In this document: one piece after another, positions 15,868 to 32,419 of the stretch
How the letters are laid out: the number at the start of each line of letters is the position of its first letter
Numbering within the stretch: position 1 is the first letter of the stretch
NCBI GenBank assembly: GCA_030055515.1
Contig: JASFYI010000005.1
Coordinates: 99,698 to 132,116 of the forward strand
DNA: 32,419 nt
Source: Methanolinea sp.
GTDB lineage: Archaea; Halobacteriota; Methanomicrobia; Methanomicrobiales; Methanospirillaceae
Direction of reading: 5' to 3'
The notes under the pieces: generated by a model
What the model was told of the DNA's origin: nothing
Database searches by the model: none
Seen by the model: only the letters and a program-made list of their open reading frames with translations
Position numbers and translations under genes: made by a program

Positions 15868-16140
15868 TCACGCGGTCTTTACCCTGTAGAGAGGTTTCCG
15901 CGCGTCCCTGATGTTGAACTTCGCGATGATGAGCCCGCTTGCGCGCAGCCGTGCGAGCGCGTTCCTGATCGTCCGCGGGGAGAACGGGACCACGCCGATG
16001 ATCTCGTGCAGCGTCCTCTCCCTGCCGTCCGAGAGGAGCGCGTAGACTGCCTTCGCAGACGACGGCAGGCGGTCGACGAGCGGGACCTGCCTGCCCACCT
16101 CAGCCCCTTCGGCCGGGGCCGGGGCCGATGCCACTGTCAT
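15868..16140 (-). CDS. Small winged-helix DNA-binding protein
   Basis: A 90-residue protein. After a disordered Ala/Pro-rich N-terminus of about 20 residues, residues 25-88 form a winged helix. SSAKAVYALLSDGRERTLHEI is the first helix pair, FSPRTIRNALARLRASGLI the recognition helix, and AKFNIRDARKPLYRVK the beta wing. It resembles MarR/ArsR-like domains without any sensor region. AGGTG precedes the ATG at 16140. It is divergent from the MsvR-like regulator and shares its 180-bp control region, so the MsvR-type operator there may control it too. The target genes are unknown. Confidence 0.78.
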   Translation of the reverse strand: MTVASAPAPAEGAEVGRQVPLVDRLPSSAKAVYALLSDGRERTLHEIIGVVPFSPRTIRNALARLRASGLIIAKFNIRDARKPLYRVKTA

Positions 16141-16232
16141 TGCACCTTACTCCTTCTTTTTTTCCGTGTATTCGCGCGTCTCTCCTGCGCCGGGTTGCCC
16201 CGGCGCGTCACCCCGCGCCGCGGGGATCATTT

Positions 16233-16250
16233 GTTCGATATTTTACGAAC
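16233..16250. promoter_or_regulatory. MsvR-type operator box in the divergent promoter region
   Basis: GTTCGATATTTTACGAAC contains TTCGAT-N4-TACGAA, which matches the published MsvR box TTCGTA-N4-TACGAA (from memory) in all but two bases and is bounded by perfect GTTCG/CGAAC arms. A second half-site, TACGAA at 16262-16267, lies ten bases before the TATA box. The gene it precedes encodes an MsvR-like protein, so autoregulation is likely. Confidence 0.7.
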
Positions 16251-16276
16251 ATTTGAGTATGTACGAACCATATGTA

Positions 16277-16314
16277 TTTATACTTTTCGTGCGCATTCTC
16301 GGTACAACGGAGGG
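16277..16314 (+). promoter_or_regulatory. TATA box and Shine-Dalgarno sequence of the MsvR-like gene
   Basis: TTTATAC (16277-16283) is a good TATA box, directly downstream of the TACGAA half-site. GGAGGG (16309-16314) ends six bases before the GTG at 16321 and decides that start. The message would have a leader of only about 15 bases. Confidence 0.65.
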
Positions 16315-16320
16315 CCACGC

Positions 16321-17115
16321 GTGACGACCGGCGAATCCCCGCGGGAGGGGGCACAGAGGTTCATCCGGATCTGCGCGTCCGACCGCGGCCTCGTGGCGAT
16401 CGACAGCCCGCTCAAGGGCAAGATCCTCGAGATCCTCGAGGCAGGCGAGACCGACTTCGAGGAGATCGTGAGCCGGTCGGGCAGGGCGAAGTCGACCGTC
16501 TCTGCGCACTTAAAAGCCCTCACGGAAGCGGGAATCGCGGTCTCGAGGCCCGATCCCTCGGACGGCCGCAGGCGGCTCTTCTCCCTCAACGGCAAGATCA
16601 TCATGCGGACCCTCGCGCTCGACCGCGACATGGAGTGGATCGACCGGTTCTTCCCCGGGAGCCTCCCCCCCGATGCGACGACCCGCGATGTCTACAGCGT
16701 CATCCTCACGAGCCTGCGCGTGAGCCTGATCTCGGAGGGGATCGAGATGCACCCCCTCTTCTCGCGCGCGGGGCGGAGGGCGGGGGAGGCGATCTACCCC
16801 CTCGTGAGGGACGACGACACCCGGTCCTTCATCTCCCGCGTCTCGCGGTTCTGGGAGAGTCACGGCCTTGGGACGCTCGCGCTCGAGCGGGCGGATCCCC
16901 CGACGCTCGTCATCAGGGATTGCTTTGAGTGCGCAAGACTCCCCATGACGGGAAAACCGGAGTGCTCATTCGGCGCCGGGATCCTCTCTGCCCTCTTTTC
17001 CGCGCACTGCGGCGACGCGAGGGAGGCCGTCGAGAAGAACTGCTACGCGACGGGGAGCAACCTCTGCAGGTTCGAGATCTGGGAGGCGGGGGGGGACATC
17101 CCCCGGGCCCGGTAG
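16321..17115 (+). CDS. msvR: MsvR-like redox-sensing transcriptional regulator (winged helix plus V4R domain)
   Basis: A 264-residue protein. Residues about 25-95 form an ArsR-like winged helix (IVSRSGRAKSTVSAHLKALTEAG). Residues about 125-255 form a V4R domain, including FGAGILSALFSAHCGDAREAVEKN and CYATGSNLCRFEIW. Cysteines are at 18, 201, 204, 215, 230, 241 and 249, and the cluster in the V4R part fits the redox-active cysteines of MsvR. That methanogen-specific regulator changes its DNA binding on oxidation. The promoter holds an MsvR-type box, which strongly supports the assignment. It probably controls itself and oxidative-stress genes; the divergent winged-helix gene is another candidate target. 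Other methanogen V4R regulators exist, so some doubt remains. Confidence 0.78.
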   Translation: MTTGESPREGAQRFIRICASDRGLVAIDSPLKGKILEILEAGETDFEEIVSRSGRAKSTVSAHLKALTEAGIAVSRPDPSDGRRRLFSLNGKIIMRTLALDRDMEWIDRFFPGSLPPDATTRDVYSVILTSLRVSLISEGIEMHPLFSRAGRRAGEAIYPLVRDDDTRSFISRVSRFWESHGLGTLALERADPPTLVIRDCFECARLPMTGKPECSFGAGILSALFSAHCGDAREAVEKNCYATGSNLCRFEIWEAGGDIPRAR

Positions 17116-17207
17116 ACCGCCACGAAGGGAAATGTTTTTGCTCTCGGTGGGAATGTGACACGTGAGGGGAGGAAACCCCGCACATCCAGCCTCCCCGCCA
17201 CGCGCCC

Positions 17208-20200: not shown

Positions 20201-20567
20201 CGCCGAGGTCCTCGCCGACCCGATGCTCGGGCGGGTCTTTGGAAACATCGTCGAGAACGCGTCCCGCCACGGGGGGAAGGCGACCCGCGTCTCGGTCTCG
20301 TGCGAGGAGCGCGAGGACGGGCTCCTCGTGGTAGTAGCCGACGACGGGGTCGGGATCCCCGCGGGGGAGAAGGAGAGGATCTTCGAGAAGGGTTACGGGA
20401 ATCACACGGGGTTTGGCCTCTTCCTCGCGCGGGAGATCCTCGCCCTCACGGGGATCGCGATCCGCGAGACAGGCACGCCCGGAGAGGGGGCGCGCTTTGA
20501 GCTCCTCGTCCCCCACGGGAAGTACAGGCGCGTATTTATGTCACGTGGGAACAGAAAAATGGAGTGA
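17208..20567 (+). CDS. Hybrid sensor histidine kinase with N-terminal receiver and six PAS domains
   Basis: A 1119-residue cytoplasmic protein with no membrane helix. Residues 1-125 are a receiver domain with the acidic pair Asp8/Asp9, the phospho-acceptor Asp53 (IVSDYQMPGMDG) and Lys in FYIQKGG. Six PAS domains follow, at about 137-267, 277-395, 406-522, 533-647, 657-774 and 777-897; the last has the DGYWDWDIPTG opening and a PAC ending. The kinase core has His917 in GITRHDIANQLTAIRGY, an N box at about 1010 (FGNIVENASRHGG) and DDGVGIP at about 1045. The H box is the methanogen variant with RHDI. The signals sensed are unknown. The next gene is another kinase of the same subtype five bases on. 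Confidence 0.9.
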   Translation: MITVLYVDDEPALLDLTKMYLQRTGRFSVDVADSAFRALEMRKTRKYDAIVSDYQMPGMDGLSLLRAIRKSGDATPFIIFTGKGREEVAIQAFESGADFYIQKGGDVKAQFAELGRKIERAVELRRAEDDRREVDERLRQIIDFLPDATFAIDRDGTVIAWNRAMERMTGIPAGEILGKGNYEYALPFYRERRPVLVDLVLRHDPATEAKYPYVRRVGRKLYSEISIPHLNGGKGAHLWFTASPLYDRSGRITGAIESIRDITERKRAESALAESEKRFRDLSDLLPLTVFEMDRHCVLSYANRAAFEMFGYTRGDFEGGLSALQMIAPEDRERARVAIDAILSGKRKPPLPPGDYTGLRKDGSRFPLTVYSSPIVSGDTIVGIRGIITDNTSRKAYEDALRERESLYRTIFETAGTAMVLIEADGTISLANSGFARLSGYSREEIENRKKWMEFVVPEDLDRMVAQHRLRRTDPEKALKSYEFRFVTRTGEIRDIHLTVDIIPGTDRSVASLLDFTERKRAESALREATAEYTHLLESVQDVYVRVDLGGRLVKASRSFATLLGYDDLAECIGKPVAETFYFHPPDWERFLEEVLREGRVTDYEIVLKRKDGSPVIVSTNSHLWYGPDGTLRGVEGIFRDVTERKAFEKALAESEACYRDVVETRTELISRFTPDGTHVFANDAYCRYFGLPREGIIGRRFRPNIPPEDRKRLAEFFSSLTPENPAGTIVHRVVLPDGRVRWHRWTDRAFFDGEGRAVEYQSVGQDITDLVEAEERLRLSFEATRDGYWDWDIPTGNAFFSPQYHRMLGYEPGSLPGHYATWRSLVHPDDIARTEGEIWRALMAGEEGFSVEFRMRRKDGDWAWILARGMVVGRDEEGRPLRMVGTHVDITDRKVIEEALREANRKITLLSGITRHDIANQLTAIRGYAAIGAGSTADPDAGALFRKIDEASEKIARFLEFTKVYQEIGVHAPTWQSIREVVRGLDPGPLTVTCDCDAEVLADPMLGRVFGNIVENASRHGGKATRVSVSCEEREDGLLVVVADDGVGIPAGEKERIFEKGYGNHTGFGLFLAREILALTGIAIRETGTPGEGARFELLVPHGKYRRVFMSRGNRKME

Positions 20568-20572
20568 ACAGG

Positions 20573-21970
20573 ATGAATCCCGCCGCGTCCCCGGGGGAGG
20601 ATGCACGCCACACGGCCAAGAGGCTGCTCCCCGTGGTCCTGCTCGTCGCGACGACCGCGGCCGGGTTTGCCATCTGCGTGCTCGCCCTCATGGCGGGCTG
20701 GCTCACGATCTTCCAGAACGTCCTCTACATCCCGATCATCATCGCGTGCGTCTACTTCCTGCGGCGGGGGTTCGCCGTCTCTGTCGGGATCGCGCTCGGC
20801 TACTTTGCGCTGATGGCCCGGTTCTCGCAGGATCCCGCCGTCCTTCAGGGGGCCCTCATCCGGGTCGCGATCTTCGTCCTCGTCGCGGCGGTCGTCACGT
20901 ACCTCGCCGAGGTCCGGGCCCGCGCAGAGCGGGACCTGCGGGAGGCAAACGAGTACCTCACGAACCTCATCGCGTATGCGAACGCCCCCATCGTCGTCTG
21001 GGACAGGGACTACCGGATCACGCGGTTCAACAGGGCGTTTTCCCAGCTCACCGGGATCCCACCCGGGGAGGCGATCGGGTCGCGCATCGGGATCCTCTTC
21101 CCCGAGGCGACCCGCGAGTCCTCAATGGAGGTCATCCGCCGGGCGACCGCGGGAGAGGCAATGGAAGTCGCCGATATCCCGGTCCTCCAGCGGACCGGGG
21201 AGGTGAGGACGGTCCTCTGGAACTCGGCGAACATCCACGGGCCCGACGGGGTCTCGGTCATCGCGACGATCGCGCAGGGGCAGGACATCACCGAGCGCAA
21301 GAGGGTGGAAGAGGCCCTCCAGATGGCGAACAGGAAGCTCAACCTCCTCTCCTCCATCACCCGGCACGACATCAACAACCAGCTCACCGTCATCCAGGGC
21401 TACGCGGCGCTCCTCTCCGAGGAGCGGCTCGACCCGGCGATACAGGAGAGGGTGGGGGTGATCGCGAGGGCCGCGGAACGGATCGCGGCGATCATCCGGT
21501 TCACGAAGGAGTACGAGAGCATCGGCGTCCACGCGCCGGCGTGGCACGACTGCCGGCAACTCGTGGATACCTCGGCCCGGGAGGTCTCGCTCGGCGACGT
21601 GCGGGTCGTAAACGACATCCCCGCGGGGCTCGAGGTCTTCGCCGACCCCCTCATCCACAGGGTCATCTTCAACCTCGTGGACAACGCCGTCCGGTACGGG
21701 GGGAAGGTCACGAGGGTCCGGTTCGCCGCCGAGGAGGCTGGTGACGGATGCACGATCACCTGCGAGGACGACGGGCACGGCATCCCCGCGGAGGAGAAGG
21801 AGAAGATCTTCGGGAGGGGCTACGGGAAGAACACCGGGATGGGCCTCTTCCTCTCCCGCGAGATCCTCGCGATCACGGGGATCTCCATCCGGGAGACCGG
21901 CAGGCCGGGAGAGGGTGCACGGTTCAAGCTCCTCGTCCCCCGCGGGAAGTACAGGGTTGCTTCCACGTGA
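20573..21970 (+). CDS. Membrane sensor histidine kinase with one PAS domain
   Basis: A 465-residue protein. Residues about 20-115 form four membrane helices of the same MASE-like type as the protein at 10785-12140, with FQNVLYIPIIIACVYFLRRG. A PAS domain spans about 127-246. The kinase core has His265 in SITRHDINNQLTVIQGYAALL, an N box at about 364 (FNLVDNAVRYGG) and DDGHGIP at about 399. ATG at 20573 is chosen because GGAGTGA lies five bases before it; a GTG at 20564 overlaps the previous stop. Its C-terminus (ETGRPGEGARFKLLVP) nearly repeats that of the preceding kinase, so the cores are close paralogues. No response regulator follows. Confidence 0.88.
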   Translation: MNPAASPGEDARHTAKRLLPVVLLVATTAAGFAICVLALMAGWLTIFQNVLYIPIIIACVYFLRRGFAVSVGIALGYFALMARFSQDPAVLQGALIRVAIFVLVAAVVTYLAEVRARAERDLREANEYLTNLIAYANAPIVVWDRDYRITRFNRAFSQLTGIPPGEAIGSRIGILFPEATRESSMEVIRRATAGEAMEVADIPVLQRTGEVRTVLWNSANIHGPDGVSVIATIAQGQDITERKRVEEALQMANRKLNLLSSITRHDINNQLTVIQGYAALLSEERLDPAIQERVGVIARAAERIAAIIRFTKEYESIGVHAPAWHDCRQLVDTSAREVSLGDVRVVNDIPAGLEVFADPLIHRVIFNLVDNAVRYGGKVTRVRFAAEEAGDGCTITCEDDGHGIPAEEKEKIFGRGYGKNTGMGLFLSREILAITGISIRETGRPGEGARFKLLVPRGKYRVAST

Positions 21971-22025
21971 CCGCGCTCCCCCTCCCGCAAAGTGCGATCG
22001 TTTCACCGGGGGGAGGGAATGTTTA

Positions 22026-22066
22026 TTTATATAGGGATCTCTCATCTCATCCAGAGCAAAGGTGAG
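22026..22066 (+). promoter_or_regulatory. Strong TATA box and Shine-Dalgarno sequence of the first PKD protein gene
   Basis: TTTATATA at 22026-22033 is a near-ideal archaeal TATA box in an A+T-rich island. AAAGGTGAG (22058-22066) is a strong ribosome-binding site ending three bases before the ATG at 22070. Together they suggest high expression of the surface protein. Confidence 0.7.
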
Positions 22067-22069
22067 ACC

Positions 22070-23680
22070 ATGAGAATCCCCCTATTCATGCTCCTCGCGT
22101 GCGGGATCCTCGCGTCCTGCATGGTGACACTCTCCTGCGTGGCGGATGAACCCCAGGAGTTCCCGGGCGATTCACCGTCATGCGACACGTGCGGCACAGT
22201 CCCGCTCGGGGACGGTGACGACGGCGTTCCCCCCGGCAACGGGCAGGGTGGGGATGAGCAGGGTGACGGTGATGCCGGCGACGCGGGCGAGATCGTCGTC
22301 CTCCCGGAGGACGAAGGGGTTCCCGGCCCCGTGTGGGCGTTCCCCGATCCATCCTGCGTGGTGCAGGGCGAGCCGATCTGGATCCACGGCACCGCGGAGG
22401 GCAACCCGCCGGTCGTCGCGGTCTGGATCTTCGGGGAGGGGTACTTCTCCTACACGACCCTCGAGGTGACCGGGAAGGGGACGTTCGACCTCGAGATCCC
22501 GGGCGAGGAGACTGCAACGCTTTCCCCCGGCGACTACTTCGTGATCGCCCAGCACCCGATGGAGAACGGTGCCCTCGACGTCTCCCCGGACGAGACGATG
22601 GAGAGGGTGTGCAGCACCTCGCCCGAGCCCGGGACGGTCCTCTTCCCGCTGAAGGGCGATGGCGCGCTCGCGGGGCAGGAGGCGTTCGAGGCGGTCCTCG
22701 GGGCGATCGAGGATCCCGCGGTCGACGACGTCGCGTTCGCGTTCAAGTTCCCGGTCGATACCGTGGAGGCCACGGGGGACGAAGGGGGAGACAGCGAAGC
22801 GGAGCCGATCTCCGAGCCGATCCCCCTCAAGCAGGTGAACGCGACACCGGCAGCGAACTTCACGGCGTCCCCGACCACGGGCCCCGCCCCGCTCGAGGTG
22901 ACCTTCACCGACACGTCGGCGGGCGTCGTCCACTCGAGGTTCTGGACATTCGGCGACGGGACGACCGCGTGGAGCAACGGGAGCGCGACCGTGACCCACG
23001 TGTACGCGTTGCCCGGGAACTACTCCGTCTCACTCACCGTGGCAAACGACGGGGGCGAGGACACCCTCGCGCGGGACGACCTCGTCCGCGTGGCGCCGTC
23101 CGGACCGCGGCCGATCCCGTTCTTCACGGCGAACAGGACGTTCGGGGTCGCCCCGCTCACCGTCCAGTTCACGGACAGGTCGAAGCGCGGGCCGCTCGCG
23201 TGGCACTGGGACTTCGGCGACGGGAACACCTCGTCCGAGAAGGACCCGGTCCACACCTACGCGTCCCCCGGGACCTACACGGTCACCCTCACGGTCTGGA
23301 ACAGCGGCGGGAGCGCGACCGCGTCGCTCCCCGTCATGGTGCGGGCAGCGCCGGTCTTCCCGGTCCCCACGCCGACCGTGACGATCCCGCTATTGCCCAC
23401 CATCTCCCCGCGCCCGACCCTCCCGCCGCTCCCCGGCCAGCCGCCGGTCGCGTTCTTCAAGGCGAACGTGACCATGGGCAGGGCCCCGCTCGCGGTCCAG
23501 TTCACCGACATGTCCTTCAATGCCCCCACCGCGTGGGCGTGGGACTTCGGTGACGGGGCGAACTCCACCGAGAGGAACCCGGTCCACGTGTACGTGCTCC
23601 CCGGGACCTACACGGTCACCCTCACGGTCCGCAACGCTGCGGGCGAGGGATCGACGCAGAGGCCGGTCTTCGCGCGGTGA
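22070..23680 (+). CDS. Secreted surface protein with three PKD domains
   Basis: A 536-residue protein. Residues 1-26 (MRIPLFMLLACGILASCMV onward) look like a signal peptide; the ATG at 22070 is fixed by the ribosome-binding site. Then comes a Gly/Asp-rich acidic linker of about 60 residues and a domain of about 150 residues (VQGEPIWIHGTAEGNPPVVA, LAGQEAFEAVLGAIEDPAVD) that recalls a region of methanogen surface proteins. PKD domains with FGDGTTAWS, WDFGDGNTSS and WDFGDGANST follow; a Pro/Thr-rich linker separates the second and third. PKD folds stiffen or link cell-surface proteins. There is no C-terminal membrane anchor or sorting tail; it ends in RPVFAR. Confidence 0.85.
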   Translation: MRIPLFMLLACGILASCMVTLSCVADEPQEFPGDSPSCDTCGTVPLGDGDDGVPPGNGQGGDEQGDGDAGDAGEIVVLPEDEGVPGPVWAFPDPSCVVQGEPIWIHGTAEGNPPVVAVWIFGEGYFSYTTLEVTGKGTFDLEIPGEETATLSPGDYFVIAQHPMENGALDVSPDETMERVCSTSPEPGTVLFPLKGDGALAGQEAFEAVLGAIEDPAVDDVAFAFKFPVDTVEATGDEGGDSEAEPISEPIPLKQVNATPAANFTASPTTGPAPLEVTFTDTSAGVVHSRFWTFGDGTTAWSNGSATVTHVYALPGNYSVSLTVANDGGEDTLARDDLVRVAPSGPRPIPFFTANRTFGVAPLTVQFTDRSKRGPLAWHWDFGDGNTSSEKDPVHTYASPGTYTVTLTVWNSGGSATASLPVMVRAAPVFPVPTPTVTIPLLPTISPRPTLPPLPGQPPVAFFKANVTMGRAPLAVQFTDMSFNAPTAWAWDFGDGANSTERNPVHVYVLPGTYTVTLTVRNAAGEGSTQRPVFAR

Positions 23681-23698
23681 CCGGCACTCCCCCTCCCC

Positions 23699-23712
23699 TT
23701 TTTCCCCCTTTT
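23699..23712 (+). terminator. T-rich tract after the first PKD gene
   Basis: TTTTTCCCCCTTTT lies 19 bases after the stop at 23680, in the 130-base gap before the second PKD gene. It fits an archaeal T-tract terminator. Confidence 0.45.
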
Positions 23713-23810
23713 CCCGCTCCCCGGGCCCTCCCCGTACCCCGCACCCGGTTTTCCCGCCCGGGAAACACTTTTTACTTCCCGTACCTCCATTCCTTATCGT
23801 GGTGGCGAGA

Positions 23811-25034
23811 ATGCGTCTCTGTCTCCCCGTGCTCTTCCTCCTGATCGGAATCCTCCTCTCCCCGTGCACCGCCTCGGACGAACCCGCGGACGGGACCGTC
23901 GTTCCGGCCGACGCCGGCGGCGGGGTCGCGGGCATCGCCGAGGCCGCGAGGGGCGGGCCCCCGCTTCCCCCCCGCGCGGACTTCGCGGTCTACGGGCCGA
24001 CGACCGGCCCCGCGCCGTTCCGCGTCCAGTTCTTCGACAACACGTCCGGGACACCCCCGTTCCGCCACCGGTGGGACTTCGGGGACGGGGGTGCCTCGAC
24101 CGAGATGAACCCCGTCCACGTCTACACCCAAAATGGCGTCTACACGGTGACGCTCGCCGTCGAGGGCCCGTACGGCTCTGACAGCGTGGCAAAGGAGGGC
24201 TACATCCGGGTGATGAACGCGACCCCGGCCGCAAACTTCACGGCGTCCCCGGCCTTCGGTCCCGCCCCGCTCGAGGTGACCTTCACCGACACGTCGGCCG
24301 GCGTCGTCCACGAGAGGTTCTGGGAGTTCGGCGACGGGACGACCGCGTGGAGCAACGAGAGCGCGACCGTGACCCACGTCTACACCCTGCCCGGGAACTA
24401 CACGGTCTCGCTCACCGTCCGGAACGAGGGGGGCGAGGATCGGCTGGCGCGCCCCGGCTGCGTCACCGTGCTCCCCTCGGGCCCGCCCCCGATCCCCTAC
24501 TTCGTCGCAAATCCCCCCTTCGGCTTTGCGCCGCTCACCGTCCGGTTCCGGGACATGTCGGTGCGGTCGCCCACCGCGTGGTTCTGGGACTTCGGCGACG
24601 GGGTGACGTCCACGGAGAGGAACCCGGTCCACACCTACGCGCTCCCCGGGATCTACACGGTCGCGCTCACGGTGGGGAACGCCGGCGGGACCGCGACCTC
24701 CACGGGAACGGTCGTCGTGCGGTCACCGACCACGGTCCCCACGCCGGCAACGACGGTCACCACCCCGCCGACGACCCCCGTTCCGCCCGCAAAGCCGCCC
24801 GTCGCGTTCTTCAGGATGAACGTGACCATCGGGAAGGCACCGCTTTCCGTCCGGTTCACCGACATGTCGTTCTTTGCACCGGCATCGTGGCACTGGGACT
24901 TCGGCGACGGGAACACCTCGTCCGAGAGGAACCCGGTCCACACCTACGTCTCCCCCGGGACATACACGGTGACGCTCACGGTGCGCAACGCCGCGGGCGA
25001 GAGCACGACGTCGCGGCCGGTCTTCGCGCGGTGA
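23811..25034 (+). CDS. Secreted surface protein with four PKD domains
   Basis: A 407-residue protein. Residues 1-22 (MRLCLPVLFLLIGILLSPCT) are a probable signal peptide. In-frame GTGs at 23799 and 23802 are possible starts. An Ala/Gly linker leads to PKD 1 (WDFGDGGASTEMNPVHVY), PKD 2 (WEFGDGTTAWS), PKD 3 (WDFGDGVTST), a Thr/Pro-rich linker and PKD 4 (WDFGDGNTSSERNPVHTY). PKD 2-4 correspond to the three PKD domains of the preceding gene in order, and both proteins end in RPVFAR, which points to tandem duplication; the acidic domain of the neighbour was lost here or gained there. It is probably an extracellular structural or adhesion protein. Confidence 0.83.
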   Translation: MRLCLPVLFLLIGILLSPCTASDEPADGTVVPADAGGGVAGIAEAARGGPPLPPRADFAVYGPTTGPAPFRVQFFDNTSGTPPFRHRWDFGDGGASTEMNPVHVYTQNGVYTVTLAVEGPYGSDSVAKEGYIRVMNATPAANFTASPAFGPAPLEVTFTDTSAGVVHERFWEFGDGTTAWSNESATVTHVYTLPGNYTVSLTVRNEGGEDRLARPGCVTVLPSGPPPIPYFVANPPFGFAPLTVRFRDMSVRSPTAWFWDFGDGVTSTERNPVHTYALPGIYTVALTVGNAGGTATSTGTVVVRSPTTVPTPATTVTTPPTTPVPPAKPPVAFFRMNVTIGKAPLSVRFTDMSFFAPASWHWDFGDGNTSSERNPVHTYVSPGTYTVTLTVRNAAGESTTSRPVFAR

Positions 25035-25088: not shown

Positions 25089-26273
25089 TCACGCCGCCTC
25101 CTCCCCCTCCCGCTGGCCGGGGCACGCCCCCGCATTCCCCCCGCAGGCGGAAACGACCCTCGCGGGGTCGAACCTGACGTGGATCTCCCTCGTCCTGCCC
25201 CTCCCCGCCGTCCTCCGGGCGCGGACCGCGATCGCCCCCGCCTCCTCGAGCCTCCGGACCCTCTGGTGGAACGCGGCGTAGCTCATCCGCACCCGCATCG
25301 TGACCGCGTCGAAGAGGAGGCCCGCCGTGAGGGGGACGCCGGGCTCGGCGAGGACAAGCCTCGCGGCCTGGAGGAGGATCTCCCGCTCCTCGCCGGAGAG
25401 CGCCTCCACGCAGTCCTCGAGCCGGGCATCCCGCGATGCCTCGAACGCCGCCTCCACGTGCCCCGCGGTGATCTCCCGGTCCCCCGCCCTCTCCGCGGCG
25501 AGCGCCGCCCTCCGGAGGAGGTCGATTCCCACCCGGAGGTCCCCGCAGGAGACGGTCTTCTCCACGACGAGGTCGAGCACGTCGCCGGGGAGCACGCCGG
25601 GGAGGAGTGCGCGGCGGGCCCTGTCGCGCAGGATGCCGGCGACCTCCTCCCTCGCGTAGGGCGAAAACGGGATCTCGGCCGCGTAGAGGACCGAGACGAC
25701 CGCGGGGTCGAGCGCGCGGGAGAGGTCGGTCCCGGGGTTCCCGACAACGAGGAGGACGCCGGCCCTCGCCCCGGGGTACGCCTCGTGGAGCCGGAGGAGC
25801 GCGGAGAGGACCTGGTCGAGGACCCTCCCGGCGAGCAGCAGGTTCGCGTCGTCGAGGCAGACGGAGAGGACGCGCTTCTCCGCGGCAAGGCCCTTCCCGA
25901 TCCGGTCGAGGACCTCGCGGACGGGGCTGCCGAGGGCGGGCGGGGCGTGCCCGTAGATCGCGGTGTGGATGCGGGAGAGGACCGCGTGGAGCGTCCGCTC
26001 GCCCTGGCAGTGGACGTGGACCGGGACGATCTTCCGCGTCGCCTCCTCGACCTCGGCAAATATCCTCCGGACGCAGGTCGTCTTCCCGGTCCCCGGCGGT
26101 CCCCGCAGGAGCGCGTTCACGGGCCTGCCGCCGTGCAGCCCGGGCTGGAGGCAGTACGCGATCTCCCGGAGCTGGGAGTCGCGGAAGAGGATCTCCTCGG
26201 GGAGGAAGTCTGCCTCGAGGACCTCGCGGTCGCGGAACACGGAGTTCCCGAGCGGGCCGATCACCGGGGCCAT
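25089..26273 (-). CDS. Orc1/Cdc6-type replication initiator
   Basis: A 394-residue AAA+ protein that would bind origins and load the MCM helicase. Walker A is GPPGTGKT (58-65). Walker B is SVCLDDANLL, with Asp where many relatives have Glu; this D-D form occurs in a second Cdc6 branch of methanogens, as far as I recall. A sensor-like LLVVGNPGTDLS follows, then the lid domain and a C-terminal winged helix (FHQRVRRLEEAGAIAVRARR). The ATG at 26273 begins just before the conserved SVFRDREVLEADFLP region. I see no convincing origin recognition boxes beside it, so it may be an accessory paralogue. It lies downstream of the restriction genes in the same direction. Confidence 0.88.
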   Translation of the reverse strand: MAPVIGPLGNSVFRDREVLEADFLPEEILFRDSQLREIAYCLQPGLHGGRPVNALLRGPPGTGKTTCVRRIFAEVEEATRKIVPVHVHCQGERTLHAVLSRIHTAIYGHAPPALGSPVREVLDRIGKGLAAEKRVLSVCLDDANLLLAGRVLDQVLSALLRLHEAYPGARAGVLLVVGNPGTDLSRALDPAVVSVLYAAEIPFSPYAREEVAGILRDRARRALLPGVLPGDVLDLVVEKTVSCGDLRVGIDLLRRAALAAERAGDREITAGHVEAAFEASRDARLEDCVEALSGEEREILLQAARLVLAEPGVPLTAGLLFDAVTMRVRMSYAAFHQRVRRLEEAGAIAVRARRTAGRGRTREIHVRFDPARVVSACGGNAGACPGQREGEEAA

Positions 26274-26371
26274 GCACGATCGGATCGGCCACCGGCTACT
26301 TGAAGGAGAGCGGGGCGCGGGGTGAAAGTGGACGCGGGGGATCCCGCAAGCGGGCCTCGTGCGCACATGCG

Positions 26372-27745
26372 TCAGGCAAATTCATCCAGTACCTTTCCGA
26401 GTTTCTCGAACTCGCCGTACCGGACCGTCCAGAACGAGGGGCCGTCGCGCACCGGAAAGACGGGGACCGCGTCGGAGAAGAGGATGCCAAAGACGGCTCC
26501 GCGGCCCGAGAAGAGATATTCGAGCGGTTCGAGGTACCCCCTCGCCCCCTTGAGGAGAGCCATGTACTCGAGGAGCTGGACGAGCCCCTCCCCCGCGTAC
26601 GCGGGGTCGTCGGTGTACTTCACCTCGCCGACGAGGACCCTTTGCTCTCCCGTCTCCCCGTCGCGGACCTCGAGGAGGATGTCCGGCCTCCCGGACCAAA
26701 TGGCCGCCGGGGATCCCCCCGTCGCCTCGCAGAAGGCCTCGAGGGCGCGGATCTTCCTCCCGGGGAACGAGTCAGGGTTTCGCAGGGCTGCTCTTGCCTC
26801 CTCGATTCCCTCCCACAGGGCATAGTTTCCCGCCGCGTTGTGGAAGATCCGGAACGTCTTTTCCCCCGCCGTCCAGCGCGCGACGCAGCTTTCGCCCTCC
26901 TCGAGCGGGTAAAAGACGATGCGTGCACCCCGCTCCCTGTAGTGGCGGATGATCCGCACGACCCAGAAGAGCTCAAAGAGCGCTTCGTCCCTCCCCGGCC
27001 TGATGAACGTCTCGTAGAGGAGCCACCGCGCCGTCCCGGGATCCCACTCGTGGGCCATCAGCCGGCGGTAGAAGAGCAGGAGCCGGGCCGCATCCCGGTA
27101 GAGGGGGAGCCGGGCCTTGAGCGCGCGGGAGACCATCCTCTCCGTGACCCTTGCCTCCCCGGCGGGGATCCTCCTCATGTACACATTCCCCGAGAGGAGA
27201 GAGGGCACAACCCTCCCGAGGTTTGCCTCCCCCACCCATGCCGAGACCCACCCGTACTCCTTCTCCAGCGCTTCCCGCATGTCGTTCTCGAGGATGTCGG
27301 AGATGATCGAGACGATCTCCCGGAGGACGAGGTTTTCCGGCGTACCGTACTCGCGCTCAATCCTCTCACAGACATAGCAGGGATTCCTCGAGCCTGGCCT
27401 GCACCGCGCCCGGAACGTCTTGTGCCAGTCGATCCTCCCCCGCACCTCCCCCTCGTACTCCTCGTCCCGAGCCTCGACCGTCGTTTTAACCCGGTGCAGC
27501 CGTTCCGCGAGGATGCGGGCGAAAGGGATCACGCCGGGGTACTCCTCTCCATCGCTCCCCTCCTGGATACGCTCCGAGAGGACGAAGTGGATGCGCAGGA
27601 TCTTCTCGAGGGCAGATATCGAAGGAAGGTAGCCCCCCTCCCGGAAGAACGTGGAAAGACCCCTTCTCTCTATTCTCCCCTCCTTCAGGAAGGCGAGGAG
27701 GTCGGGCGCGATCTCCTCGACGAGGATCTCTGGGTCGGTGACCAT
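26372..27745 (-). CDS. McrC-like nuclease subunit (PD-(D/E)xK)
   Basis: A 457-residue protein. Near the C-terminus GRPDILLEV (about 350) and VGEVKYTD (about 373) supply the D...E-x-K catalytic residues of the PD-(D/E)xK nuclease fold. The rest is a helical region with a C-x7-C-x2-C cluster (CRPGSRNPCYVCERIEREYG), which could bind zinc. The layout matches McrC, which cuts modified DNA when driven by the McrB motor. The ATG at 27745 begins directly after the stop of the McrB-like gene, with no gap. No symbol is given because mcrC and mcrB mean methyl-coenzyme M reductase genes in methanogens. Confidence 0.75.
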   Translation of the reverse strand: MVTDPEILVEEIAPDLLAFLKEGRIERRGLSTFFREGGYLPSISALEKILRIHFVLSERIQEGSDGEEYPGVIPFARILAERLHRVKTTVEARDEEYEGEVRGRIDWHKTFRARCRPGSRNPCYVCERIEREYGTPENLVLREIVSIISDILENDMREALEKEYGWVSAWVGEANLGRVVPSLLSGNVYMRRIPAGEARVTERMVSRALKARLPLYRDAARLLLFYRRLMAHEWDPGTARWLLYETFIRPGRDEALFELFWVVRIIRHYRERGARIVFYPLEEGESCVARWTAGEKTFRIFHNAAGNYALWEGIEEARAALRNPDSFPGRKIRALEAFCEATGGSPAAIWSGRPDILLEVRDGETGEQRVLVGEVKYTDDPAYAGEGLVQLLEYMALLKGARGYLEPLEYLFSGRGAVFGILFSDAVPVFPVRDGPSFWTVRYGEFEKLGKVLDEFA

Positions 27746-30331
27746 TCACTTCGAGGTTTCCCTTGGGATCCCAAGGAATTCCCGGGCGTATTCCACCATG
27801 TACTCCTTGTCCCTCACGCACTGCAAGCCTTCGAGGATTTTGATGAACTCTCTTTGATCCTCCTCGCGGAGACCCTCAAACTGGGGGACGACATACATCA
27901 CGAGCGCGGACTCCCACCCGTCACGTCCCGAGTGCAGGATGCACCTGATGACGTCGTGGATGATGGCAGGGCCGATCTTCCTCTTCTCGTTGATCCTCTC
28001 CCACGCCCCGGCGACCTCCGCTGCCATCCCCTCCGGGAGGTCGATGCCCCACCGCCGCGCATACTCCTCGACGAGCGCCCTGTCGATCCGCGGCGGCACG
28101 TTCACGGGGACGAATGCGAAGCGCCGCATGAAGGCGTAGCTCATCTCGTAAAGGCTGCTCTTGTCAAACGTGTTCATCGTCGCGATGATGCGCCAGTCGG
28201 GGTGGATGGCGAAAGTCTCCTCCCCGAGCGGGAGGGAGGGGTCAGGCTTCCCGACGATTCTCACGGGCTTCCCGCCGTACTCATAGGGGAGGGTGACGGT
28301 GTCCCCCGTGAGCACGGAGAAGAATGCCCCGAATGCCTTGTCGATGTCCGCCCTGTTGATTTCGTCGATGACCAGCCACCGGTTGGCCGGCTCGCCCCCC
28401 TCGCCGCGGAGGCACTGGAGGAAGAGCCCCGGGTGGAAGACGAGCCTCCCCTCGCGGTCGGGCCGGTAGCCGCCGATCGTCTCGTACGTCGACCACTCCG
28501 AGGACGCCGTCGCGAGGACGAAGTTCCCCCTGCCGGCATACGCCTCGCAGATATCCTGTGCGAGCTTCGACTTGCCCGTCCCCGGCGGCCCGATGAGGAT
28601 GACGTGCTTTCCGCTCGTGAGCGCGGCGTTCACCTGTGACGCGATCCGCTCCCATTCATCCGGCAAGAAATACAGGCTGGAAGAGGAGAGCCTGCGCCCG
28701 CGGAAGTTGACGGCGAGTTTCCCTGCGACCTCGCCCCACACCCGCACCGGCCAAGCAGGGAGCACCTCTCCTCCCGCCGCGATACCCGCGGGGTTTGCGG
28801 GCTCTCCCGGGAACGAGAGGGCCTCGAAGACGGGGAAGAGCGCGGAGAGGACGGTGCGGATCCGATCACCCACGTCGTTGGGGATCGCATCGGCACCGTG
28901 CCGTTCCGCGAGGATCGTCTCTTTGGACCACGCCCCGAAGTCCCCCGCGAGGATCCTGTCGCGGATGTTCTCCTGGCCTGCGGGATCCTCGTCACCTCTC
29001 GGCTTGTTGAACGCGTCGATTTCCGGATTCTCCAAAAGGACGTCCTGCACGAGCCGCTGGACCCGCGGGTCAGACCGTGCCGCCTCCACGTGGGCGCTCC
29101 CGACACGGTCCCCGTACGCGAGCCCGTACCTGAGTTGCGAGGGCGTGACCGCGATGAAGAGCTGGGGGACACGCGAGAAGCCCATCTCCTCCCCGTCCCC
29201 AGCCTCCCGCGTGATCACGCCCCACGTGTAGGCGTGGACTGCCTGTCCCACGAAGGGGAAGCCCCGCGTCGCGTACCTCCCCGTCGCCCCCCGCGATTGG
29301 AGGAAATCGTCGAGGAGCGCCCTGATGACCACGTTGGGAGTCGCCCCGTGCTTTCCCTTGAATGCCCCGATCGCGGGCTTCACGGACTCGCGGTACGCCT
29401 CCCTGTACTTCCCCGCTTCCGGCCCCCTGGCGAGGCTTTTGCCGTGGAGACCTTTCTTTTGGACGATGCCCGCGATCGCGATCGCGTCGCGGAATGCCTC
29501 CGGCAGGGATCGGGGCTCCTGTGCCCACGCACCTTCCCCGAGAGCGTGGAGGATCGCGCAGAGGGTCCAAGGATCCATCCCCGTTGCACCCGCGAGGGCG
29601 AGGAGGACCTCGTTTACCGCGGCGTACGTCGCGCCGGGTGTCGCACCCTCCCTGACGGCTGGGAATATCCCCGCTTTCCGCAGGGCATCCTCGACCGGGC
29701 GCGAGAGGACGCCGTATTTGTCGGGGTGGGCGACGTGGAGGATTGCCGACGCGAGATCCACTGCGCCGAATGCGTCGACGCGGTCCGCGACATGCCGCGA
29801 CTCGTCGAGGAGGAGAGCGAGTCGTTCCCTATAGACCCCTGCATCCCCTCCCTGCCAGCCACCGGGCCCTCTGGGACCAATCCACCCCCTCTGCCGGGCG
29901 TACTCGAGGAACGCGGAGAACTCCTCTCCCGTCGTGACAGGAAGGTGCCCGGGCGAGAATACCCGGCCAAACTTCCCCGTGACCTCCGCTTTCGACCCGA
30001 CGATCTCCCTATGGCCCGGTTCCCCGGGGACCGCCCGGTGGCGTTCCCCGAGTCGTGCGACCGCCCCCTCCCACGCGGTCATCCTGACGATGGGAAAGCC
30101 CCTCGCGGTCAGGAAGCGTACTGTCTCCCGCTCCCCGCTGAACGAGTGAGGACCAAGCTCTTTCCCGAGAGCAAATCTCGACGCGAGGGAGACGACGTAC
30201 TTCTCCGGGTAGAGCTTCCCGCCGTGCACGACCATGTACTCGGCAGCCTGCCTCTCCTTGGGGATGCCCGTTCTGTCTATCTCGCGGAGCGCCGCGAGGA
30301 CGTGCTCTCGCGTGATTTCCTGAGGAATCAT
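27746..30331 (-). CDS. McrB-like AAA+ motor with N-terminal DNA-reader domains (modification-dependent restriction)
   Basis: An 861-residue protein. The AAA+ core has Walker A GPPGTGKS at about residue 580, Walker B WLVIDEINRADIDKAFG at about 648 and the McrB-type sensor MNTFDKS at about 715. McrB uses GTP; the usual MNxxDRS is MNTFDKS here, so nucleotide preference is uncertain. Residues 1-75, with GGKLYPEKYVVSLASRFALG, resemble the N-terminal domain of ScoMcrA-type modification-dependent enzymes. The middle has an HPDKYGVLSRPVEDALRKAG block and a DUF3578-like block (FVGQAVHAYTWGVITREAG). Such domains read modified bases or flipped cytosines. With the McrC-like protein it should cut foreign modified DNA. 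No methyltransferase is nearby. Confidence 0.8.
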   Translation of the reverse strand: MIPQEITREHVLAALREIDRTGIPKERQAAEYMVVHGGKLYPEKYVVSLASRFALGKELGPHSFSGERETVRFLTARGFPIVRMTAWEGAVARLGERHRAVPGEPGHREIVGSKAEVTGKFGRVFSPGHLPVTTGEEFSAFLEYARQRGWIGPRGPGGWQGGDAGVYRERLALLLDESRHVADRVDAFGAVDLASAILHVAHPDKYGVLSRPVEDALRKAGIFPAVREGATPGATYAAVNEVLLALAGATGMDPWTLCAILHALGEGAWAQEPRSLPEAFRDAIAIAGIVQKKGLHGKSLARGPEAGKYREAYRESVKPAIGAFKGKHGATPNVVIRALLDDFLQSRGATGRYATRGFPFVGQAVHAYTWGVITREAGDGEEMGFSRVPQLFIAVTPSQLRYGLAYGDRVGSAHVEAARSDPRVQRLVQDVLLENPEIDAFNKPRGDEDPAGQENIRDRILAGDFGAWSKETILAERHGADAIPNDVGDRIRTVLSALFPVFEALSFPGEPANPAGIAAGGEVLPAWPVRVWGEVAGKLAVNFRGRRLSSSSLYFLPDEWERIASQVNAALTSGKHVILIGPPGTGKSKLAQDICEAYAGRGNFVLATASSEWSTYETIGGYRPDREGRLVFHPGLFLQCLRGEGGEPANRWLVIDEINRADIDKAFGAFFSVLTGDTVTLPYEYGGKPVRIVGKPDPSLPLGEETFAIHPDWRIIATMNTFDKSSLYEMSYAFMRRFAFVPVNVPPRIDRALVEEYARRWGIDLPEGMAAEVAGAWERINEKRKIGPAIIHDVIRCILHSGRDGWESALVMYVVPQFEGLREEDQREFIKILEGLQCVRDKEYMVEYAREFLGIPRETSK

Positions 30332-30542
30332 GGATTACTGAATTGTCATGCCTGATTCTATATATAGTCCCCTTACTGGGTCGAACTCAAAATACCGCAA
30401 AATTAGCTCTCAATTGACATTTGGGCACACATTCTACAACCCCGAATAAAAGTACAATTGTAAAAACCTCATAATACAAAAAAAATTAAGGAAAAACCGT
30501 AAAATTGACAGTACTCGAAGGGAAATACATATTTGAACAACA
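30332..30542. other. A+T-rich spacer between the McrBC-like operon and the transposon remains
   Basis: The composition drops abruptly from about 65-70% GC to well under 45%. It contains the McrB promoter, a 10-base palindrome TACAATTGTA (30453-30462), A-rich runs and a TATA-like TACATATTT at about 30527-30535 that would serve the transposase fragment. I see no gene in it; it may be the edge of an old insertion. Confidence 0.5.
30359..30366 (-). promoter_or_regulatory. TATA box of the McrBC-like operon
   Basis: TATATATA on the minus strand is centred about 31 bases upstream of the ATG at 30331. With no Shine-Dalgarno sequence before the ATG, this predicts an almost leaderless transcript for the two-gene operon. 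Confidence 0.6.
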
Positions 30543-30776
30543 ATGAACTCCCCCATGACAGTAGAACGGAAGGACCCAAAATGGTTCCTCTTGGAACAGG
30601 TCCTGGCGATTGTCTCAACACGCCGCGCATAGCAGGAATTTTCAAAATACGAGGTTACTCCGATAAAGACTGCAACCGAAGCGGTAAAAATTGCCATCGT
30701 CGCGAGGTTCTTTTTGGTTGACGATTTCGAAAAACCTGTGACATCGAAAGAAAGAGAAGGCTCTCTCGAAATTTGA
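30543..30776 (+). pseudogene. Degraded N-terminal fragment of an IS4-like transposase
   Basis: Reading from ATG at 30543 (or 30555) gives MTVERKDPKWFLLEQVLAIV, TAG at 30630-30632, then QEFSKYEVTPIKTATEAVK and IAIVARFF up to TGA at 30774-30776. The segments either side of the TAG join into one plausible N-terminal region of the transposase family whose C-terminus lies at 31855-32419 on the other strand. That is: a kinase-free helical start with DPKW...LEQVL, then K-Y-x-V-x-x-x-K-T-A. Traces continue to about 30840. The family match is from memory. The TAG is most simply a nonsense mutation. Confidence 0.5.
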
Positions 30777-30815
30777 GAACTCAAAATGGGAGATTTCCCA
30801 AAAGATTTCACCAAA

Positions 30816-30837
30816 TTACCTGGTTTTTACCTGGTTT
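30816..30837 (+). repeat. 11-bp tandem direct repeat at the left edge of the IS5-like element
   Basis: TTACCTGGTTT occurs twice head to tail (30816-30826 and 30827-30837), directly before the 3' end of the IS5-like gene. It may mark the junction or a slipped duplication. Confidence 0.5.
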
Positions 30838-30863
30838 TTTTTAGAAGTCATCGATAGCTCCCG

Positions 30864-31806
30864 CTACCAAACTCCTTTCCGTTTGCGAGAACCCCACGGG
30901 ATCAGATTGAACAAAAACGAGGCAAACACGTTTTTGACATGCACCCTCTCTACAGTCGTCACGAGAACGTGATCATGGGGGAATGTCCGTTTGATCACGG
31001 CGAAAACCCGTTCAATCACCCTCCGTGTCTTGCTGATCGCACGGTTCCTGCGCTTCTCCCTGATAGTCAGCGGGCAACCCCGGACAGCCCTTTTCACGGT
31101 TTTATCGATCGAGGCACGGGGTTTCACTCCGAAATATCCCTTGTCGCGGGACACTGTCTCCCCTAGCATCGGGAGGTCTACCTGGCTATCAGGGACAGAT
31201 GCAATCGTTGTCTCGATGCGGCAGACCAGGTGATCCTCCCTGTCGATGAGCACGTGGAGCTTGTATCCAAAACAGGGTATCTCTCCTCTTTTCGTCCAGG
31301 TCCCGTCTTTATTCTCCGGGTTTTTCCTTCATCCCGCGGTGATGTCCCGGAAGACAGTTTTCCCGGGTCCGCGGTGATGCTCGTTGCATCCTGGATGACT
31401 CCACGGGTGATTACAGGACCCTTGGCCGCGATCTGTGCCTGGAAATTATCCCATATCTCCTGGGATTTGCCTGATTCCTTGAGATGTTCGCGGGAGAACC
31501 AAGCTATGGAAAAATCGGGAACCCCGTGGAAAAACTTGATGGACTTCCGAAACGGGATGCGATCCGTCACCTGGCGTTCCAGTTCCGGGCCGGAGAAGTT
31601 GGAGAGTTCCTGGAGCACGAGGGATTTGACCATCACGACAGGGTCGATATTTGGTCTTCTGCCTTTCCTTTCTTGTTCTTGTAGAGGTCTTCAAGAATCG
31701 GGCGAAACTGGTCCCAGTCAATTATCGATTCAAATTCTGAAAGGCGGTCCCCAACCTTTTGTACCCTCTTGCATGCCTCGTGCAAGCCGAATGTTTCGAA
31801 GGTCAT
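30864..31806 (-). pseudogene. IS5-like DDE transposase gene broken by two frameshifts
   Basis: On the minus strand three frames together give one transposase. From ATG at 31806 the first frame encodes MTFETFGLHEACKRVQKVGD and later WDQFRPILEDLYKNKKGK, ending in a stop at about 31632. The second carries GRRPNIDPVVMVKSLVLQEL, then IPFRKSIKFFHGVPDFSIAW and DATSITADPGK. The third starts at about 31307 with NKDGTWTKRGEIPCFGYKLH and runs to the stop at 30864, with RDKGYFGVKP and RRVIERVFAVIKR. The DDE residues (D in QDATS, D in RDKGY, E in VIERVF) all survive. The second shift fits loss of one A from a run of six. A TATA-like element lies at about 31830-31840. Confidence 0.75.
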
Positions 31807-31854: not shown

Positions 31855-32419
31855 TCACCACTCAGCCAACCGCTGTAATTGAATCTTATCGCCAAATCCC
31901 AGAGAAATAACGAGCCCGAGTAAAAGTACATTCAGGCAGACCGTCTTTTTCACAGATCGCGTTGTATATTTGTGGATCCTCTTCAAACCGAATGCATTTT
32001 TCGCCATTTTGAAGACATCCTCGATGAGGGATCTCTTCTCCACGAGTTGGATCTCGTCGCGGAGGTACATCACCAACCGACGCGCCAGGGAAGTGTATCT
32101 CTGGACGAGCTGTTTCGCATCAGACCTCCCGAAAATCCAGAGGGGAAAATTGAGTTTCCTGAGCAGTTTGGGTAATGAGAAGTTCCTCTTGGCGAAGATC
32201 GCCGGGACGATGCTGAACTCGAAGATTCCCTCCACGTAGTTATCATACGCGTCGTATCCCTTGTCAAAGACGATTGTATCACCGATCCGGGCGATTCTGC
32301 GCCTTTTCAATTCACTCACGATTTCACGGAAAATGGTGGAGTCGTGGGGAGATCCCGGATGGAGCAGGAAACAGACCGGCCGCAGGGAATGCGCATCGAG
32401 TGCGAGAGTGAGTTTGTAG
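31855..32419 (-). CDS. IS4-like DDE transposase, C-terminal part (5' end outside the window)
   Basis: The minus-strand frame is open from the window edge (YKLTLALDAHSLRPVCFLLH) to TGA at 31855-31857, at least 187 codons. Motifs are GDTIVFDKGYDAYDNYVEG, with the second catalytic Asp in FDKGY, and RSLIEDVFKMAKNAFGLKRI, with the catalytic Glu in SLIEDVFK. The end KTVCLNVLLLGLVISLG is typical of the DDE_Tnp_1 fold. This is the transposase of an insertion sequence related to IS4 elements common in methanogens. It appears intact as far as seen, unlike its two neighbours. The gene ends 49 bases from the start of the IS5-like pseudogene. Confidence 0.8.
   Translation of the reverse strand, partial: YKLTLALDAHSLRPVCFLLHPGSPHDSTIFREIVSELKRRRIARIGDTIVFDKGYDAYDNYVEGIFEFSIVPAIFAKRNFSLPKLLRKLNFPLWIFGRSDAKQLVQRYTSLARRLVMYLRDEIQLVEKRSLIEDVFKMAKNAFGLKRIHKYTTRSVKKTVCLNVLLLGLVISLGFGDKIQLQRLAEW

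What the first reader, a model, noticed from the sequence alone, without database searches (positions are those of the whole stretch)
27746..30331. McrB-like motor with a long, uncommon N-terminal reader region
Before the AAA+ core (about residue 580) there are roughly 550 residues with at least three blocks: a ScoMcrA-like N-terminal domain, a KYGVLSRPVEDAL block and a DUF3578-like block. The sensor motif is MNTFDKS instead of MNxxDRS. The combination suggests a modification-dependent enzyme with different DNA-modification specificity, perhaps for phosphorothioate or glucosylated bases.
Basis: partly seen in the sequence, partly recalled or inferred. Interest (0 to 1): 0.5.

Follow-up and report, generated by a model that had tools for sequence, protein, structure and literature searches.

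The report
McrBC-like restriction with dead-glycosylase-like reader
An archaeal DNA-cutting defence system seems to find its target with an unannotated module that has the shape of a DNA-repair enzyme but lacks that enzyme's catalytic residues; relatives of the module are attached to other nucleases and defence effectors in bacteria, archaea and virus-derived contigs.

Summary
The gene is real: 861 aa, McrB-type AAA+ motor (549-861), abutting a McrC-like PD-(D/E)xK partner. A relative of the partner lies in 22 of 22 fetched loci with a strong motor match. The motor's N-terminal slot elsewhere holds MrcB_N/ADAM, EVE or DpnI_C readers. Here it holds block 1 (2-84), a ScoMcrA 'head' domain (Z 9.9, 33% identity; function unknown in print); block 2 (85-272), which no Pfam, NCBIfam or PADLOC model names, with an HhH-GPD DNA-glycosylase fold nearest archaeal 8-oxoguanine glycosylases; block 3 (276-548), unidentified. 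The DUF3578 label for block 3 failed; MNTFDKS keeps NxxD, and the K is a clade trait. Block 2 belongs to a mobile family (56 genome and 13 viral loci) fused to NucS-like, HNH, TIR, NOV_C and, separately, McrB domains. The catalytic Asp column holds Asp in 0 of 54 (Asn 53); the Lys column holds Lys in 0 of 54, though the neighbouring column has it in 32. Best reading: a catalytically dead base-flipping glycosylase used as a reader. The window's copy is divergent (24 of 36 conserved positions kept), so specificity may have shifted or moved. No ligand is shown.

The parts
27746..30331 (-). McrB-like protein B, 861 aa, whole gene
30080..30331 (-). Block 1 (residues 1-84): ScoMcrA head-like domain
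   Evidence: AF2 model against PDB: 5zmm_B Z 9.9, rmsd 1.8, 67 aligned, 33% identity; PADLOC mREase_IV E 2.1e-4 over 1-82; 12 relatives near the N-termini of other fetched proteins
29516..30079 (-). Block 2 (residues 85-272): HhH-GPD glycosylase-fold domain, predicted non-catalytic reader
   Evidence: window model: Tm1821 Z 8.9, MjOgg Z 8.8; canonical member L099 pLDDT 96.7, MjOgg Z 9.2; profile A3 matches B at 85-272 (the window is itself a row of A3)
29702..29704 (-). Ser210, at the column aligned with the glycosylase catalytic Asp (Asn in 53 of 54 rows)
28688..29506 (-). Block 3 (residues 276-548): unidentified, no convincing relative found
   Evidence: low AF2 confidence here
27749..28687 (-). 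AAA+ McrB-type motor (residues 549-861)
28568..28591 (-). Walker A GPPGTGKS (581-588)
28352..28378 (-). Walker B WLVIDEINR (652-660)
28163..28174 (-). NxxD signature NTFD (720-723), followed by Lys
26372..27745 (-). Partner C, 457 aa, McrC-like PD-(D/E)xK nuclease; its ATG follows B's TGA directly
27416..27439 (-). GRIDWxxT segment of C (103-110), aligned with the like segment of McrC
26618..26689 (-). RPD...ExK nuclease motif of C (D355, E374, K376)
   Evidence: the three residues are invariant in 23 of 23 rows
30358..30367 (-). CTATATATAG, TATA-box-like, 27 bases before the ATG (read by eye)
   Evidence: promoter role is inference

Best explanation
B and C form a two-gene McrBC-type (Type IV-like) restriction system. 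The N-terminal part of B reads DNA; one module of it (block 2) is a DNA-glycosylase-fold domain that lacks the catalytic Asp (and, by the alignments, the Lys), so it would flip out and hold an unusual base without excising it. Recognition would let the AAA+ ring, with C bound through its N-terminal part, use NTP to translocate, and C's PD-(D/E)xK domain then cuts. Shown by computation: the gene pair, motor motifs, nuclease residues, predicted folds, changed catalytic columns, and movement of block 2 among effectors. Inferred: DNA target, base flipping, hydrolysis, cleavage, defence role. The recognised base is unknown; as the window's copy is divergent its ligand may differ from the family's, and blocks 1 and 3 may share the task.
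For: Motor and partner: profile of the motor against E. coli McrB hhalign E 4.1e-21; relatives of C in 22 of 22 fetched loci with a strong motor match, one split, one partial; D355/E374/K376 in 23 of 23; C profile against a McrC set hhalign E 8.3e-5 over 77 columns. Reader slot: of 22 motor N-termini, MrcB_N in 5, EVE in 3, DpnI_C in 2. Block 2 fold: canonical domain pLDDT 96.7; all 50 rows listed by VIA-align are HhH-GPD glycosylases, the archaeal/Thermotoga 8-oxoG enzymes first at Z 9.2-8.0, the next at 6.4; the window's own domain gives Z 8.9, 8.8, 8.3 and 7.7 to the same four entries; profile against 13 archaeal Ogg proteins E 3.7e-4, score 32.9 against at most 21.8 in 30 column shuffles; one genome place is hit by both Pfam Ogg-HhH (E 3.3e-4, under its cut-off) and the block-2 profile (E 5.7e-6). 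Catalytic columns: Asp 0 of 54, Asn 53, Ser 1; Lys 0 of 54. Modularity: after block 2 in 56 genome loci come NucS-like 33, HNH 14, McrB AAA 2, TIR 1, NOV_C 1, cut or short 5 (partly by reading); 7 effector changes is the fewest on the tree.
Against: No ligand or activity evidence. Z of 8-9 lies below the tool's caution level (about 13) for helical models; Foldseek's best E is 0.006 for the canonical domain and 0.47 for a glycosylase with the window model; hhalign probability is 37% and the best single Ogg hit E 0.39, below three unrelated chains. The column next to the Lys column is Lys in 32 of 54 rows, so a slip of one residue would restore a Lys there in those; and the Ogg set was picked by a motif that contains the Lys. 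The window's block 2 keeps 24 of 36 conserved positions and has an end branch of 2.31. C is not recognised by Pfam McrBC or DUF2357 (1 of 21 relatives each, E 0.022 and 0.053). By single sequence the motor is as close to midasin (E 1.1e-11) as to McrB (9.9e-12) and far below NCBIfam's McrB cut-off (42 of 637 bits). Three weaker motor loci (L051, L068, L069) showed no relative of C. Type I R-M neighbours are a minority (N6_Mtase in 8 of 93 neighbour ORFs).
Confidence: 0.58

Rival explanations
1. Block 2 of this protein is a decayed or purely structural remnant; specificity lies in block 3 and/or block 1.
For: 12 of 36 family-conserved positions lost, end branch 2.31 against a median of 0.3; block 3 is long and unassigned.
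Against: The fold is confidently modelled (ten-residue means 84-97 over 81-260 but for 73 at 151-160, with the family alignment as input), 24 conserved positions including W150, R184, YGV and W255 are kept, and the ORF is intact.
Confidence: 0.24
2. Block 2 is a working DNA glycosylase that excises a base, and the nuclease then acts at the abasic site.
For: The fold is that of active 8-oxoG glycosylases; Lys is present in 32 of 54 one column away from the catalytic one; active glycosylases of other folds do defend against phages (Brig1, PMC11078745, passages).
Against: No Asp in the Asp column in 54 of 54 rows; the window has neither Asp nor Lys there.
Confidence: 0.05
3. The system targets RNA or acts by abortive infection, as proposed for CoCoNuT relatives of McrBC.
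For: A branch of McrB relatives with unusual domains has been predicted to target RNA (PMC11090510, abstract and passages).
Against: NxxD here, NxD in CoCoNuTs; intact PD-(D/E)xK; the readers named in this motor clade are MrcB_N, EVE and DpnI_C.
Confidence: 0.07
4. One reading: a phosphorothioate- or glucose-specific enzyme with ScoMcrA-like and DUF3578-like readers.
For: The ScoMcrA head is present.
Against: The head is not the sulfur-binding domain; the DUF3578 test failed.
Confidence: 0.06

Closest known systems
McrBC (E. coli K-12 type)
   Same: AAA+ motor with Walker A/B and NxxD, upstream of a PD-(D/E)xK partner with a GRI..T segment; reader at the N-terminus of McrB
   Different: No ADAM/DUF3578 detected; three-block N-terminus; partner only remotely similar to McrC; MNTxDK where E. 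coli has MNTADR
ScoMcrA
   Same: N-terminal head domain (Z 9.9, 33% identity)
   Different: AAA+ motor instead of HNH; SBD and SRA not detected (block 3 could not be modelled)
Archaeal/Thermotoga 8-oxoguanine DNA glycosylases (MjOgg, Tm1821, SsOgg; Pfam Ogg-HhH; called Ogg2 from memory)
   Same: Fold of block 2; order of the hairpin, the Asp-bearing segment and the C-terminal helix
   Different: Catalytic Asp replaced (Asn 53, Ser 1 of 54), Lys absent from its column; a module beside an effector in the complete ORFs read
PADLOC candidate PDC-S02
   Same: Shares the NucS-like nuclease half (E 6.4e-46 over 216-346 of L099)
   Different: The PADLOC match does not cover block 2 of L099
Brig1/Brig3 defence glycosylases
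   Same: Glycosylases used against modified phage bases
   Different: Described as uracil-DNA-glycosylase superfamily (Brig3 core likened to AAG) and catalytically active (passages); not HhH readers

Membership tests
McrB | Walker A and B of the AAA+ domain | tested here: met
   GPPGTGKS 581-588, VIDEIN 654-659
McrB | NxxD signature | tested here: met
   NTFD 720-723
McrB | Similarity to E. coli McrB | tested here: met
   profile hhalign E 4.1e-21; single sequence E 9.9e-12, but midasin is equal at 1.1e-11
McrB | GTP rather than ATP use, hexamer | not testable with these tools
   needs biochemistry
McrC | PD-(D/E)xK nuclease | tested here: met
   D355, E374, K376 in 23 of 23
McrC | DUF2357 N-terminal domain | tested here: inconclusive
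   Pfam DUF2357 and McrBC in 1 of 21 each, E 0.053 and 0.022; hhalign with a McrC set E 8.3e-5 over 77 columns; with E. coli McrC alone E 0.35
HhH-GPD DNA glycosylase superfamily | Fold | tested here: met
   Z 9.2 canonical, 8.9 window; 50 of 50 listed rows for the canonical domain; predicted models only
HhH-GPD DNA glycosylase superfamily | Catalytic Asp | tested here: not met
   0 of 54 rows: same fold, not filed as an active glycosylase
HhH-GPD DNA glycosylase superfamily | Catalytic Lys of bifunctional members | tested here: inconclusive
   0 of 54 in the aligned column, 32 of 54 in the column before it; the window has none there
ScoMcrA | Head domain | tested here: met
ScoMcrA | Sulfur-binding domain and SRA | tested here: inconclusive
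   not seen, but the block 3 model is of low confidence
ScoMcrA | HNH nuclease domain | tested here: not met
   no HNH among the 25 of 27 Pfam families shown; the C-terminus is AAA+
ADAM/DUF3578 (MrcB_N) | Profile match of block 3 | tested here: not met

The most novel reading that the evidence does not exclude
A whole family of catalytically dead HhH-GPD glycosylases (Asp to Asn, Lys lost or displaced) serves as exchangeable base-flipping sensors of non-canonical or damaged DNA bases for NucS-like, HNH, TIR and NOV_C effectors and, repeatedly, for McrB motors: a reader class beside SRA, EVE/YTH, ADAM, SBD and winged-helix readers that the Pfam, NCBIfam and PADLOC models searched do not name (PHROGs was not searched).
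Probability: 0.48. Interest if true: 0.82.

Novelty: new variant of a known kind. Interest (0 to 1): 0.6.

Why it matters
Type IV restriction is defined by its readers. A reader class drawn from repair glycosylases would explain proteins now annotated as hypothetical, suggest that modified or oxidised purines (the substrate type of the nearest folds) may be sensed as foreign, and give a directly testable set of small proteins. From general knowledge, Asp-to-Asn is a usual laboratory change for trapping such glycosylases on substrate; here it is the natural state in 53 of 54 aligned members.

Tried and rejected
Block 3: in 392 phylum genomes 48 match at E<=1, the best apart from the window's own at 0.011; the two other hits of the block 2+3 query lie in block 2; none on plasmids at E<=1 or in viral contigs; among all fetched ORFs the best are E 7e-4 to 0.05, mostly in loci that itself brought in; MrcB_N test negative. 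Whole B and block 1 in viral contigs: none. Residues 1-548 in the phage collection: none; two canonical block-2 domains there: none. Profile of C against PDB sequences: none at E<=10. DndC in the genome: only hits under the cut-off, as in 8 of 14 control genomes. Cdc6 beside C as a system part: among fetched ORFs a relative only in L032, so dropped. Single-linkage BLAST of motor N-termini was too coarse to use except that B joins none of the 25. Co-occurrence with viruses or modification genes was not surveyed.

Limits on counts. The genome scan used the pattern A[YFH]P[DE][KQR]YGV[WL], which forces YGV and W/L; the Asn column is outside it. The later HMM search matched 12 of 392 phylum genomes, the window's included; of the seven loci read, four have Asn in the Asp position (L225, L226, L228, L230), L227 has Ser, and the distant L231 and L235 keep Asp. 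A3 has 54 rows: the window and 53 of 69 loci, those under 140 aligned residues and near-duplicates dropped. The Ogg set is 13 of 19 loci, picked by a motif that contains the catalytic Lys. Effector classes: most by a regular expression, ten by reading after it left them open, five by Pfam; Pfam itself sees HNH or HNH_2 in only one C-terminal part each and NucS_C in 32 of 54 at E<=0.01, so the HNH class rests on motif and reading. Neighbour scan: 93 same-strand ORFs of 185 listed. Motor N-termini scanned: 22 of 25. Some viral contigs may be the same DNA as genome loci (L132 and L163 have equal contig lengths).
Full report
What is there. The window's minus strand carries a gene of 861 codons at 27746-30331 and, with its ATG directly after the first gene's TGA, a second of 457 codons at 26372-27745. 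I call the products B and C. B residues 549-861 are an AAA+ motor: AAA_5 at E 6.7e-17; solved McrB chains at E about 1e-11, with midasin equal; and a 23-row profile of the motor against E. coli McrB at hhalign E 4.1e-21. Walker A (581-588), Walker B (652-660) and the NxxD signature NTFD (720-723) are intact.

The motor-nuclease pair. Of 392 genomes of the phylum, the window's included, 122 have some match to B at E<=0.001; many are short AAA matches, and a set of strong motor matches (35-51% identity) stands out. In the 22 fetched loci with a strong motor match a relative of C lies in the same locus in 22 (one split, one partial); three loci with weaker motors showed none. In C's family D355, E374 and K376 of a PD-(D/E)xK site are invariant in 23 of 23 rows. 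Pfam's McrBC and DUF2357 models reach only 1 of 21 members each, at E 0.022 and 0.053, and E. coli McrC alone gives E 0.35, but a profile of 13 archaeal McrC plus E. coli McrC matches the N-terminal part at E 8.3e-5 around GRIDWxxT...EN..L. C is thus McrC-like, remotely.

Of 22 scanned N-termini of the motor's relatives, Pfam finds MrcB_N (ADAM) in 5, EVE in 3 and DpnI_C in 2; that these read modified bases is from the literature and general knowledge. B's N-terminus joins none of 25 by BLAST. So B's blocks sit where this clade keeps its readers.

Block 1. The AlphaFold2 model of residues 1-550 places residues 2-84 on the ScoMcrA head domain: 5zmm_B, Z 9.9, rmsd 1.8, 67 aligned, 33% identity. 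The paper that solved ScoMcrA calls the head small and of unknown function, distinct from the sulfur-binding domain (PMC6224610, passages), so it does not argue for phosphorothioate. Block 1 is itself mobile: 12 relatives lie at or near the N-termini of other fetched proteins, one on a Thermococcus plasmid.

Block 2. For residues 85-272 no Pfam, NCBIfam or PADLOC match covers the domain in B, and in relatives only hits under the curated cut-offs touch it. Plasmid relatives: a NucS-like nuclease gene between the methylase and specificity genes of a Type I R-M operon of Paracoccus, two haloarchaeal proteins with weakly NucS/YhcG-like C-termini, a Loktanella protein whose C-terminus looks HNH-like by eye, and a Salinibacter protein with MrcB_N and AAA_5, followed by a PDDEXK_7 gene. 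A genome scan gave 56 loci, a viral scan 13. Effectors in the 56: NucS/YhcG-like PD-(D/E)xK 33, HNH 14, McrB AAA 2, TIR 1, NOV_C 1, cut or short 5; in the 13 viral loci HNH 12, cut 1 (with ten set by reading). Pfam finds NucS_C and YhcG_C in 32 of 54 C-terminal parts at E<=0.01. In a Candidatus Acetothermia MAG (L129) the McrB fusion is followed by a clear McrC (hhalign E 4.3e-35). On a 59-row tree the effector changes at least 7 times; McrB fusions lie in three places: the window (long branch, place unresolved), L114+L129 (100/99), and Salinibacter, which groups with haloarchaeal NucS-like members (95/94). An HMM search added divergent copies, two of them (L228, L230) N-terminal to McrB-type motors by reading, and matches of about 50 residues in three motors of B's own clade.

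Fold and lost catalysis. The canonical domain (L099) models at pLDDT 96.7. All 50 structures listed by VIA-align are HhH-GPD DNA glycosylases; the first four entries are 8-oxoguanine glycosylases of MjOgg type at Z 9.2-8.0, the next kind at 6.4. Foldseek's best E is 0.006. The window's own block 2 gives the same four entries at Z 8.9-7.7; Foldseek gives them only E 0.47 or worse. The tool warns that helical models can reach such Z by chance, so I looked for sequence support: profile against 13 archaeal Ogg proteins E 3.7e-4, score 32.9 against at most 21.8 in 30 column shuffles; a weak hit to SsOgg in the same register (E 0.39, ranked below three unrelated chains); and one small archaeal protein (L235) hit by both Pfam Ogg-HhH (E 3.3e-4, below cut-off) and the block-2 profile (E 5.7e-6). 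Both alignments put the catalytic Asp in a column that is Asn in 53 rows and Ser in the window, and the Lys in a column with no Lys in 54 rows; which residues are catalytic is from general knowledge of the family. Against this, the column before the Lys column is Lys in 32 of 54, so for the Lys a slip of one residue cannot be ruled out; the Asp loss does not depend on it. L231 and L235, distant relatives, keep Asp. So the fused family seems to have the scaffold of a base-flipping enzyme without its chemistry.

The window's copy. Of 36 positions conserved in at least 48 of 53 other members, the window keeps 24. Lost are P40, N64, H66, L70 and R72 (of ENNxHWxGLxR), both hairpin glycines by this alignment (a gap; the window has FGA nearby), W134, N135, S138, L179 and D183, in L099 numbering. 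Its end branch is 2.31 against a median of 0.3. This can mean a changed ligand or decay; I cannot tell.

Block 3. Residues 276-548 found no convincing relative and were modelled at low confidence. The DUF3578 label failed a direct test.

Mechanism. Most likely B docks on DNA through blocks 1-3, block 2 probing flipped bases, then the ring with C translocates and C cuts. Only the parts are shown; every step of action is inferred from McrBC and glycosylases.

Literature. The McrBC census (PMC11090510; outline, abstract and passages) has no occurrence of 'glycosylase', 'HhH' or 'helix-hairpin-helix' in its main text; nor have PMC10853773 and PMC12839542 for 'glycosylase' and 'HhH'. The paper searches listed no paper that I could recognise, from titles, starts of abstracts and the passages opened, as describing a glycosylase-fold reader in restriction. 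The library holds open-licence papers only, and supplements were not open to me, so this is no proof of absence.

Verdict. A new variant of McrBC, and a lead to an unnamed, widely spread reader-like domain family that is more interesting than the single gene.

Noticed in passing
window 30864-31636 and 31855-32418 (-): Transposase stretches (DDE_Tnp_1, DUF772) beside the system at the end of contig C5; between them and B an AT-rich stretch (GC 0.40 at 30332-30863 against 0.66 in B).
   Followed up: partly
window 25089-26366 (-): Orc1/Cdc6-like gene whose longest ORF begins 5 bases after C on the same strand; one of three Cdc6_lid matches in the genome; among fetched ORFs a relative only in L032.
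   Followed up: partly
L039, N-terminal part of ORF 4879-8232 (about residues 300-345): By eye, a second HhH-like stretch with Asn where a catalytic Asp would be (LPGFGMSAAS...PLNKPAV), suggesting tandem glycosylase-like modules in one McrB.
   Followed up: no
L130 6950-7879: Block-2 domain followed by a TIR domain (TIR_2 E 8e-16): a possible base sensor on a TIR effector.
   Followed up: no
L155-L167: Block-2 + HNH-like proteins on 12 of 13 IMG/VR contigs, so virus or prophage carriage is possible.
   Followed up: no
L118 3014-4849: Block 2 reads in frame after a PdxA domain with no stop between; a true fusion or a missed start.
   Followed up: no
   Followed up: partly
window 8910-10151 (+): AAA_21/AAA_15 ATPase, possibly another defence gene.
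   Followed up: no
window 16006-25034 (+): V4R/HTH_5 regulator, PAS-rich histidine kinases and a protein with four PKD domains.
   Followed up: no
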